From contig NZ_CP039731.1 in NCBI RefSeq assembly GCF_005155025.1, forward strand, positions 4,030,001 to 4,094,000: 64,000 nt of DNA. Direction: 5' to 3'. A program made the translations under genes and the position numbers. A model generated the notes under the pieces. That model saw only the letters and a program-made list of their open reading frames with translations. It searched no databases and was not told where the DNA came from. Position 1 is the stretch's first letter; each line of letters begins with the position of its first letter. This DNA comes from Aquitalea aquatilis (lineage in GTDB: Bacteria > Pseudomonadota > Gammaproteobacteria > Burkholderiales > Chromobacteriaceae). This document shows positions 8,469 through 17,830 of this stretch, piece after piece.

Positions 8469-8625
8469 GAATCCGCTGCGCGGAAAATGGTTTGCCTGCC
8501 GCTTCCGCGCGGCGGACGGGAAAGGGATCTTTGCTTGACCAACGATTCCCACACTTGAATAGCTGGCCGCATTGAATGGCCTGCGGCGGCCCGCCGGGAC
8601 CCGACCGGGGCGAGACCCGCGAAGT
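8469..8625 (+). repeat. Degenerate copy of the hairpin repeat
   Basis: The first 52 bases (8469-8520) align without gaps to 8665-8716, with 42 identities by eye. Downstream similarity is limited to short blocks such as GGCCTGCGGC, and the large variable hairpin seen in the full copies is not intact. It ends in GGGGCGAGACCCGCGAAGT (8607-8625), the core of the 45-bp repeat found at 9231 and 18061. Confidence 0.6.
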
Positions 8626-8664
8626 AGCTTTTGCTGTTGCTTTAAACTGGTGAACACCAAGTGG

Positions 8665-8875
8665 GAATCCGCTACGCGGATGATGTTTTTCACGCCGCTG
8701 CCGCGCGGCAAACGGGAAGGAGGGATTGTGTGGCCAATCCCTCCTTCACCTCCCAGGCCACCCCGGGCAAGCATGGCCTGCGGCTCCCCTCCGGGTCCCG
8801 TCACTGCTGCGGCACGGCTGGAACTCGCGATTGGCTAACGTCCAATCGCTCAAACAGCCAGCCGCTTAAACCCGC
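8665..8875 (+). repeat. Dispersed 211-bp hairpin repeat, copy A
   Basis: This copy aligns end to end with 34176-34386 on the opposite strand, and both are 211 bases long. Two hairpins stand out: GAAGGAGGGATTG / CAATCCCTCCTTC (8716-8728 with 8735-8747, loop TGTGGC) and GCGATTGG / CCAATCGC (8827-8834 with 8842-8849, loop CTAACGT). Loops and flanks are conserved in copy B while both stems have other sequences that are still self-complementary. No coding frame explains it. Confidence 0.8.
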
Positions 8876-9230
8876 AGCAGCGCCACCCCTCGGCATGCTT
8901 GACGGGGGATGGGGTGGCGTCGGTGCGGTGGGGAGTTTGTGGTGGATAGCTGCAATGACGCCCGACTGTGCTGCACCCAGCCCAGTCCTCTCCCAGCAGA
9001 CGCTATAGAAGCAGCCCCATTTATTCCGTAGGCCAAAACAAAACCAACTAGACCGGGCCCCGTCAGCGCAAGCCGACACGGACGTGCCGCTCAGGATGTT
9101 AAGCGGTCGGCTGTCCGCAGCGACACGGTTAGCGCGCCGCAAGTTCCGGCCGCGCCCTGGGCAGCATGGCAGGGGCGGGAATTCGACGCGCTGCGGGTTG
9201 CCTTTTCTTTGGCTTCTGTCTTTTGGCAAA

Positions 9231-9275
9231 AAAAGAAAGAAGCTCGACGGCGGGGCGAGACCCGCGAAGTTAAAC
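9231..9275 (+). repeat. 45-bp dispersed repeat, copy 1
   Basis: Identical to 18061-18105 at 42 of 45 positions; the three differences are all G to A in the segment after AAGCTC. It ends CGAGACCCGCGAAGTTAAAC. This copy lies just beyond the 3' end of the reverse transcriptase gene, where base composition switches from GC-rich to AT-rich. Confidence 0.75.
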
Positions 9276-9339: not shown

Positions 9340-10842
9340 TTATGATGAATAGTCATAATCCAATGATCTTGGATGCATTACTTTTTCAATGCCAATTTCA
9401 GTCACTCCCCTTTTTATTACTTTATATATTAATGTAAAACTAGGTATCTCCAATAGTGTTAGCCCCATAATTCGTTTTCTTCTCATCCGGATGGCGAAAC
9501 GATTTTTGGGTATGCCGCGCGGGAAACACGAGTACGTTACCAATGTCTTTGATGCTACGAGCTTTGCCCTACACTCAATTACCCTATAAACTGTTGAAAC
9601 AAGCCAGCCATCAAGCTCCTTTAATTGTTTCTCATCATCAATCAGCGGGTAAAAACTCATAATGCCCTTGAAATATATTCTCCCACTTCCTCCATTTAAA
9701 AAATCAATTAAATCTTGAGTACTGAGCCCACCGTACATGTATCGTCTAATTTGCGCCAACGCAATTAGCAATGCCTTATCCCCATGAGGTTTTGGTAATA
9801 ATCTAGCATTTACTGGTGTTTGCTTTAGTGGTTGAATTAAATTCTTGTAAAGAAGGTATGATATCTGTTTTTTAATTTTATTGACCGAGTTGGGTTTTAT
9901 CGACACTTTGTCGACCGCAATTGAATAGCCAAGAAAATTAAATGCGCTTTTTGAGTGAATTTCGGCCGGCATATCTCCCTTAATAAGCAGACTTATGCCA
10001 TCGGACTTCTTAGTATTGACCTTTACTCCGGCCTCATTCGAAAAATCAGAAATTAATTCAAACGATCTGCAAATGCTTGAATAACTATCGCTCCAGACAA
10101 TAGTATCGTCAGCGTATCTGGCAAATTTCAAACCAGCCTTTTCAAAACTTCTATCCAATTTCCAGCAAACCATATTTGCTAAAAATAGCGAGATGGAAGT
10201 GCCTTGCGGTATTCCACGCTCTCGCGTTTCCAAAAATGCATTGATTACATACTTATCCTCTTCACCAATAAGAAATCCATTTTTATCGTACTGATCATGC
10301 AAGTATTGATGAGAAATTGACCCGAAAAAATCAGAAAAATCAAACTCTGAAATAAATGCTCTTGAATTTTCTTTTAGCGATACCGATACGTCTTGAATTG
10401 CAAAATGTACATTTCTATCATTTCTGTAGGCGTATGAGAACGAACTAAATCGATGCTTATTTTTTTGAAGCAATCTATTGTAAAATAATTTCGACACAAC
10501 AGAATCTGGAATGGTGTAAATAGATACTTCTCGGCAACCACCGTCAGATTTTTGAATCTTCCTTACAAAGGGAGGATGGGGCTTGTATATCCTAGTTTCA
10601 ATCGCTTTTGCTATGGATTTTGCTATGCTTTTTGATTTTCTTTTTACATAAAATGGATTAAATTTACTATCAATATTCCAATAATCAGGTTTGTGAATGA
10701 TTTTATCAGAATTTATGATAAGTCGTTCTTCATTCCTTTTGTGCTCAAGATGCAAGTAGTTGTGATATTGATGATAGCGTCTAATTAATTTCTTACATTC
10801 TTCTTGTATTAATAGTTCTAGCCTATACTCCAATTTGAACAT
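9340..10842 (-). CDS. Reverse transcriptase, UG/DRT-like (candidate phage defence)
   Basis: The 500-residue protein is an RNA-directed DNA polymerase. Visible RT motifs: KSDGGCREVSIYTIPDSVV (fingers, about 98-116), motif A EFDFSDFFGSIS (about 166-177), motif B GIPQGTSIS (210-218), catalytic YADD (243-246), motif D GVKVNTKKS and motif E FNFLGYSI (301-308). A further 190 residues after motif E hold a thumb-like part and an unassigned C-terminal domain. There is no retron NAxxH/VTG pair, no maturase endonuclease and no Cas1 fusion. The gene is far more AT-rich than its neighbours, a sign of transfer. The ATG at 10842 follows GGAGAG at a proper distance and lies just past an intrinsic terminator; the longer frame to 10905 would translate that hairpin and is rejected. 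Which UG/DRT class it belongs to cannot be settled by eye. Confidence 0.88.
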   Translation of the reverse strand: MFKLEYRLELLIQEECKKLIRRYHQYHNYLHLEHKRNEERLIINSDKIIHKPDYWNIDSKFNPFYVKRKSKSIAKSIAKAIETRIYKPHPPFVRKIQKSDGGCREVSIYTIPDSVVSKLFYNRLLQKNKHRFSSFSYAYRNDRNVHFAIQDVSVSLKENSRAFISEFDFSDFFGSISHQYLHDQYDKNGFLIGEEDKYVINAFLETRERGIPQGTSISLFLANMVCWKLDRSFEKAGLKFARYADDTIVWSDSYSSICRSFELISDFSNEAGVKVNTKKSDGISLLIKGDMPAEIHSKSAFNFLGYSIAVDKVSIKPNSVNKIKKQISYLLYKNLIQPLKQTPVNARLLPKPHGDKALLIALAQIRRYMYGGLSTQDLIDFLNGGSGRIYFKGIMSFYPLIDDEKQLKELDGWLVSTVYRVIECRAKLVASKTLVTYSCFPRGIPKNRFAIRMRRKRIMGLTLLEIPSFTLIYKVIKRGVTEIGIEKVMHPRSLDYDYSS

Positions 10843-10865
10843 ATTGCTCTCCAGTTTTTTAAACA

Positions 10866-10893
10866 AAAAGCCCAAGCGATTAGCTTGGGCTTT
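10866..10893 (-). terminator. Intrinsic terminator in the leader of the reverse transcriptase
   Basis: AAAGCCCAAGC and GCTTGGGCTTT form an 11-bp perfect stem with a 5-base loop; on the minus strand it is followed by TTGTTT. It stops any transcript coming from valS or from the leader promoter only about 24 bases before the RT start codon, so the RT message must read through it. Confidence 0.88.
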
Positions 10894-11033
10894 CCACGGG
10901 TCCAACCTGTCAAAAATAAGTTACCACTTGGTTAAGTTGGTTTTGATGCCAAAGTCCCATCTGGCACATGACTACACTCAAAAGTGGAGACACATCCCAT
11001 CAAAAAGGGGACCCGTTCTTTCCATAAGAAAGT
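10866..11033 (-). ncRNA. Candidate structured RNA upstream of the reverse transcriptase
   Basis: Between valS and RT lies a roughly 170-base segment that can be a small RNA. On the minus strand ACGGGTCC (11016-11009) is perfectly complementary to GGACCCGT (10903-10896), which would close a domain of about 120 bases. Inside it TGCCA/TGGCA, CACT/AGTG and a CC-ACTT/AAGT-GG stem can form, with single-stranded T5 runs nearby. The RNA would end at the terminator at 10866-10893. The position directly 5' of an RT gene is where known UG/DRT and retron RNAs lie. No family was assigned; the 5' end is inferred from a promoter guess. Confidence 0.55.
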
Positions 11034-11039
11034 TGAGAA

Positions 11040-11068
11040 AATTTAGCAAGTAATTTAATAAAAATCAA
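11040..11068 (-). promoter_or_regulatory. Candidate sigma-70 promoter for the RT leader RNA
   Basis: On the minus strand TTGATT (11068-11063) and TAAATT (11045-11040) are separated by 17 bases; each matches four of six consensus positions. It begins 8 bases after the valS stop codon and would start a transcript near 11033. Confidence 0.35.
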
Positions 11069-11075
11069 CTTCTAA

Positions 11076-17365: not shown

Positions 17366-17830
17366 TTATTTGGACGAACTGCAATTTCCTGGTGTAGCCA
17401 TATCCAGATCCGCAATATCAGCTTTTCCCTTTTCTTCAGAAACTTGCTCCAAGCCAGCACCACCCACAAACATACCTAGCTTGATATATTGACGAATAAA
17501 ATAATTCTTACCTGCATCAAACATTACATCAATTGAATTTGCCGAAAACTCTGATTCGGTATCAATTTTATGAACCTTACCGCCAGAAACTTCAGTATGA
17601 AAAAAAACGTCCGGGGCGCTCTCACCCACACACTTGCCGTCAATAAACAAGTCTTTCCTAAGTGCCTTACCGACAAAGCTATTACGATAGATATAAACAC
17701 CAGCATTACCAGCACTGGGGGGATTGAACTCCTTGGCTTTGGCTGAAGCTTCCTTAGGTGCCATGTTTACTGATGCACAGCCGGTAAACAGTAGGGATAT
17801 AGTCATAGCAATAGCAAGCGAGGCTTTCAT
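17366..17830 (-). CDS. DUF2846-like lipoprotein
   Basis: The 154-residue protein has a lipoprotein signal peptide: MKASLAIAMTISLLFTGC, with the lipobox LFTGC and Cys18 as lipid site. The mature part includes GNAGVYIYRNSFVGKALRKD and VFFHTEVSGGKVHKI, the pattern of DUF2846 proteins, whose role is unknown. The gene is clearly more AT-rich than its neighbours, suggesting transfer. The start at 17830 gives a proper signal peptide. Confidence 0.82.
   Translation of the reverse strand: MKASLAIAMTISLLFTGCASVNMAPKEASAKAKEFNPPSAGNAGVYIYRNSFVGKALRKDLFIDGKCVGESAPDVFFHTEVSGGKVHKIDTESEFSANSIDVMFDAGKNYFIRQYIKLGMFVGGAGLEQVSEEKGKADIADLDMATPGNCSSSK

What the first reader, a model, noticed from the sequence alone, without database searches (positions are those of the whole stretch)
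9340..11075. AT-rich reverse transcriptase island behind valS: candidate UG/DRT-type phage defence system
Seen: a 500-residue protein with complete RT motifs (EFDFSDFFGSIS, GIPQGTSIS, YADD, FNFLGYSI), a long unassigned C-terminal region, strongly AT-rich DNA in a GC-rich chromosome, and a structured leader RNA candidate just 5' of it. Known: UG/Abi-group RTs (DRT1 to DRT9) are stand-alone RTs in defence islands, several of them with an upstream non-coding RNA used as template. Not seen: retron NAxxH/VTG motifs, a maturase endonuclease domain, DGR repeats or Cas genes. Inference: a small mobile defence unit placed after valS. Its exact class is open, so it could be a known DRT type or a new one.
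Basis: partly seen in the sequence, partly recalled or inferred. Interest (0 to 1): 0.86.

Follow-up and report, generated by a model that had tools for sequence, protein, structure and literature searches.

The report
DRT9 phage-defence reverse transcriptase with ncRNA
Behind the valS gene sits a horizontally acquired copy of DRT9, a known bacterial phage-defence system in which a reverse transcriptase uses a run of U in its own small RNA to spin out long poly-A DNA when phage attacks; it is a good, complete new member, but the kind of system is already published.

Summary
The gene (10842..9340, minus strand, 500 aa) is a UG28/DRT9 reverse transcriptase: PADLOC Drt9 688.6 bits over the whole protein, next model 112 bits; 57% identical end to end to the DRT9 RT of solved structures. 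It keeps all 125 nearly invariant columns of 32 DRT9 proteins, including YADD, lock residues K98/R104/R140 and priming tyrosine Y496; the second, Y498, is also present. The leader is the DRT9 ncRNA: a covariance model built from 32 relatives without this window finds exactly one match in 64 kb, 11038..10854 (E 7e-26). The template loop is kept, with five U where most relatives have four. The unit is 35% GC in 60% GC DNA and absent from all nine same-genus genomes held; eight show other sequence after valS. Best explanation: an acquired DRT9 that makes protein-primed poly-dA after phage infection and sacrifices the infected cell. Membership is shown by sequence; activity in this host is inferred from published work. 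New member of a known kind; low interest. By-products: U5 and U3 template variants, and 15 of 34 other DRT9 carriers without a detectable ExoI, the published silencer.

The parts
9340..10842 (-). DRT9 (UG28) reverse transcriptase, 500 aa; YADD at residues 243-246, priming tyrosines Y496 and Y498 near the C-terminus
10854..11038 (-). DRT9 ncRNA (covariance-model match; likely transcript about 11033..10862)
   Evidence: 111.6 bits, E 7.1e-26, model built without the window; fold z -4.5
11018..11032 (-). ncRNA 5' stem-loop (CUUUCUUAUGGAAAG)
   Evidence: covarying helix 1
11009..11016 (-). 5' strand of the long-range helix (ACGGGUCC) that closes the ncRNA core
   Evidence: covarying helix 2
10896..10903 (-). 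3' strand of the long-range helix (GGACCCGU)
   Evidence: covarying helix 2
10912..10916 (-). U5 stretch (CUUAUUUUUGAC) at the place of the U4 poly-dA template of characterised DRT9
   Evidence: template role from PMC12483538 and PMC12489045
10867..10893 (-). [quoted passage not shown]
   Evidence: sequence and fold; the consensus scan did not list it
11040..11068 (-). weak promoter-like pair TTGATT-17 nt-TAAATT ahead of the ncRNA
   Evidence: read from the sequence; 8 of 12 consensus bases, below the threshold; inference only

Best explanation
A complete DRT9 (UG28) anti-phage system acquired horizontally just downstream of valS. The ncRNA is transcribed ahead of the RT gene, folds around the RT and presents a U-run (here U5) at the active site. 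The RT uses its own C-terminal tyrosines (Y496/Y498) as primer and reads the U-run again and again, making long poly-dA covalently bound to itself. In uninfected cells the product is probably degraded by host exonuclease I, which this genome encodes; phage infection raises dATP and protects 3' ends, poly-dA accumulates and the infected cell is lost together with the phage. Shown here: membership of RT and ncRNA, intact key residues, intact template loop, acquisition, ExoI in the host. Inferred from published DRT9 work: poly-dA synthesis, hexamer assembly, triggering, abortive infection.
For: PADLOC Drt9 E 1.2e-207, 688.6 bits over residues 28-517 of the 521-codon frame, next model 112 bits. 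DRT9 RT of PDB 9ioa/9iob/9nlv/9nlx matched at 653 bits over its full length. The window departs from none of 125 columns conserved in at least 95% of 32 DRT9 proteins; Y26 (=Y25), K98, R104, R140, D245, D246 and Y496 are among them, and Y498 is also present (functions from PMC12489045). DRT9 RTs including the window form one clade, SH-aLRT 98, apart from UG17, DRT2 and other RTs. Held-out ncRNA model hit E 7e-26, unique in 64 kb; the held-out E. coli DRT9 ncRNA is found by the same model. 91% of helix cells paired against 42-49% for slid controls. U-run of at least 4 at the template position. No DRT9 in nine same-genus genomes, one of them only 61% complete, and other sequence after valS in the eight with a readable site. 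ExoI in the host.
Against: No expression, phage or biochemical data for this copy. The template loop differs from the tested systems (U5 then GACA instead of C, U4 then ACUU), and most single changes in that loop damaged SenDRT9 defence (PMC12483538). The window RT is only 57-60% identical to the DRT9s tested in the laboratory.
Confidence: 0.92

Rival explanations
1. A DRT9 system that is intact in sequence but inactive or drifting in this host, for example because the changed template loop (U5G) no longer supports iterative poly-dA synthesis.
For: C122U and A127G in SenDRT9 numbering lie in a loop where most substitutions hurt SenDRT9; the window combines both changes; longish end branch 0.63.
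Against: RT is fully open with no loss at any nearly invariant column; U5 also occurs in five other loci (about three other lineages) and U-then-G in two others; the RNA helices are intact.
Confidence: 0.06
2. A related UG RT (DRT2, UG17/DRT10-like, DRT3a) that uses another template and makes another product.
For: Those families are among the next best profiles, and DRT2 and DRT10 also use an ncRNA (PMC12489045, PMC12632851).
Against: A gap of more than 570 bits to the next profile, a DRT9-only clade, and a DRT9 ncRNA with the U-run template.
Confidence: 0.01
3. A group II intron maturase, retron or DGR remnant.
For: Generic RT similarity (group_II_RT_mat 138 bits, cut-off 300; retron_St85 62.7 bits, cut-off 235).
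Against: Curated cut-offs not reached; no Rfam intron or retron RNA; no second RT in the genome; full-length DRT9 match.
Confidence: 0.01

Closest known systems
SenDRT9 / E. coli DRT9 (PDB 9ioa, 9nlv; PMC12483538, PMC12489045)
   Same: RT 57% identical end to end with nearly identical numbering; same ncRNA-then-RT layout, 5' stem-loop, long-range helix, template loop, two C-terminal tyrosines
   Different: U5 followed by GACA instead of U4 flanked by C and ACUU; middle part of the ncRNA differs; two residues instead of one after Y498; other genomic site
PsaDRT9, Photobacterium sanctipauli (species of locus L014; tested in PMC12483538)
   Same: 59% identical RT, same ncRNA model match (137 bits in L014); PsaDRT9 defends against phages in E. 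coli
   Different: U4 template; ncRNA loops differ
DRT2 and DRT10 (ncRNA-using DRTs)
   Same: lone RT with an ncRNA that it reverse transcribes
   Different: DRT2 makes concatemeric gene-like cDNA (PMC12483538) and DRT10 tandem-repeat DNA (PMC12632851); DRT2 and UG17 RTs fall outside the DRT9 clade

Membership tests
DRT9 (UG28) | RT of the UG28 clade over its full length | tested here: met
   PADLOC Drt9 688.6 bits; one clade with 32 other DRT9, SH-aLRT 98
DRT9 (UG28) | YADD catalytic motif and lock residues K98, R104, R140 | tested here: met
   all among the conserved columns kept by the window (roles)
DRT9 (UG28) | N-terminal helical extension with the tyrosine that stacks on the ncRNA (Y25) | tested here: met
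   Y26 in the window aligns with E. coli Y25 and is conserved
DRT9 (UG28) | two C-terminal priming tyrosines (Y496, Y498) | tested here: met
   window ends ...SLDYDYSS, Y496 and Y498 (roles)
DRT9 (UG28) | ncRNA immediately upstream with conserved stem-loops | tested here: met
   held-out covariance model, 111.6 bits, E 7.1e-26, 11038..10854
DRT9 (UG28) | U-rich template loop | tested here: met
   U5 at the U4 position
DRT9 (UG28) | poly-dA product, hexamer, phage-triggered abortive infection | not testable with these tools
   needs experiment
Retron | retron RT family and msr-msd RNA | tested here: not met
   retron models far under their cut-offs; no Rfam hit
Group II intron | maturase RT over cut-off and intron RNA | tested here: not met
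   138.5 of 300 bits; no intron RNA

The most novel reading that the evidence does not exclude
The U5G template loop (C122U plus A127G, a combination not seen in the other 37 loci) makes this DRT9 work with an altered priming register or processivity, so that it is a natural template variant that tells which loop positions set homopolymer synthesis.
Probability: 0.12. Interest if true: 0.35.

Novelty: new member of a known kind. Interest (0 to 1): 0.17.

Why it matters
It adds an apparently intact DRT9 in an order where only 4 of 399 genomes searched carry one. It also gives natural variants of the template U-run (U5 here, U3 in a Luteimonas locus) that bear on how homopolymer synthesis is templated. 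The finding that 15 of 34 other DRT9-carrying genomes show no ExoI gene makes it testable whether other nucleases silence DRT9 there. None of this changes the picture of the system.

Tried and rejected
Rfam search of the locus: only two chance-level matches. Consensus promoter and terminator scan: none listed; the visible terminator hairpin is extended by wobble pairs into its own U-run, and the promoter-like pair has 8 of 12 bases. Plasmid tblastn: one other clear DRT9 (Hymenobacter, 45%) and one weaker partial match (Thioclava, 33% over 73%), the rest mostly group II introns. IMG/VR: one DRT9 contig (L088), so no sign of regular phage carriage. A retron, a group II intron or a new UG class was considered and dropped. 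No structure prediction was run because solved structures of a 57% identical DRT9 exist.

Full report
Observation. The minus strand of 9340-10842 encodes an intact 500-residue RT (ATG at 10842, TAA ending at 9340). The gene has 35.5% GC and GC3 32.5%, while the window has 59.9% GC and the neighbouring valS GC3 84% (profile). It is the only RVT_1 gene found in the 4.36 Mb genome. The leader between the valS stop and the RT start folds 4.5 standard deviations better than shuffles.

Identity of the protein. PADLOC's Drt9 model matches the whole protein at 688.6 bits; the next model scores 112 bits. NCBIfam has no DRT9 model among its hits; group II maturase, Drt3a, Drt2 and retron models are all far below their cut-offs. 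The DRT9 RT of entries 9ioa, 9iob, 9nlv and 9nlx aligns end to end at 653 bits. On an alignment of 32 DRT9 proteins the window departs from none of 125 columns that are at least 95% conserved. These include the residues that PMC12489045 found to matter: Y25 (window Y26), K98, R104, R140, D245, D246 and Y496; the second priming tyrosine, Y498, is present too. A tree with UG17, DRT2 and other RTs as outgroups has all 33 DRT9, the window among them, on one side of a branch with SH-aLRT 98 (the outgroup branches are long, so the profile result is the stronger one).

Identity of the RNA. Upstream regions of 32 related loci were aligned without the window. RNAalifold finds a 5' stem-loop and a long-range helix; 9 of 14 pairs show changes on both sides that keep the pair. 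A covariance model from these finds one site in the 64 kb window, 11038..10854 minus, 111.6 bits, E 7.1e-26, and also the held-out E. coli DRT9 ncRNA (130.9 bits). On 38 sequences 91.2% of helix cells are paired, against 42-49% when the partner is slid by 1-3 columns (the alignment was fitted to the structure, so this leans towards it). The template loop reads AACUUAUUUUUGACAGG in the window. Of 38 loci, 31 have U4, 6 have U5 (this window, a Neisseriales group L031/L086/L087, Bacillota L030, Bacteroidota L038) and one (Luteimonas L034) has U3. The RNA ends in a GC-rich hairpin with a U-run just before the RT start region.

Acquisition. None of nine same-genus genomes has a DRT9 (one of them is only 61% complete); of 399 genomes of the order four do, and one more same-family genome (G034, Crenobacter, 55%) was found. 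At the valS 3' end, eight relatives diverge from the window within a few bases of the stop codon. By eye all eight have a terminator hairpin there (for example AAAGCCCACCGTTTGGTGGGCTTTTTT), which the window lacks at that place. What follows differs between species: one (G002) carries an AT-rich gene pair including an FRG-domain protein, another (G004) has a TIR-domain gene about 3.8 kb further on. So the spot behind valS is variable and takes AT-rich cargo, some of it of kinds common in defence islands. On the far side the DRT9 unit ends near a dispersed genus-wide repeat, which also follows valS in G006 and G009; it may have supplied homology for the exchange (inference).

Mechanism. From PMC12483538 and PMC12489045: the DRT9 ncRNA is scaffold and template, a U4 loop templates poly-dA, C-terminal tyrosines prime it, the complex is a hexamer, phage infection triggers accumulation, ExoI degrades the product in uninfected cells, and activation leads to abortive infection. 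All sequence features that these steps need are present here, including an ExoI gene in the host. The product, assembly, trigger and protection are not shown for this copy. The U5G loop is the one visible departure; each half of it has precedents in other loci, which argues against simple decay.

Novelty. The system is published, with structures. This is a new member. The side results (template variants; carriers without detectable ExoI) are small but testable; that count rests partly on draft and metagenome-derived genomes, though several isolates of more than 4 Mb are among those without it.

Noticed in passing
window 8606-9275: Genus-wide dispersed intergenic repeat: units of roughly 230-330 bp with 23 matches in the own genome and up to 44 in a relative. 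It lies next to the DRT9 unit. Identity and origin of the repeat not worked out.
   Followed up: partly
L034:4816-4965: DRT9 ncRNA of Luteimonas sp. 8-5 has only three U at the template position (ACUUUAAC) although its RT is intact; loss of one U abolished SenDRT9 defence in PMC12483538.
   Followed up: no
genomes of L015, L016, L017, L018, L020, L023, L027, L030, L031, L035, L036, L037, L038, L041, L042: No ExoI (PF08411) match in 15 of 34 genomes that carry DRT9, although ExoI is the published silencer of DRT9; some of these are drafts or MAGs.
   Followed up: partly
L080:76-1732 and L076:3845-4904: In same-genus relatives, an AT-rich gene pair with an FRG domain sits directly behind valS (G002), and a TIR-domain gene lies about 3.8 kb behind it (G004): a variable, possibly defence-rich spot.
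   Followed up: partly
window 17366-17830: Second AT-rich dip (GC about 48%) with a lipoprotein-like 154-aa ORF on the minus strand.
   Followed up: no
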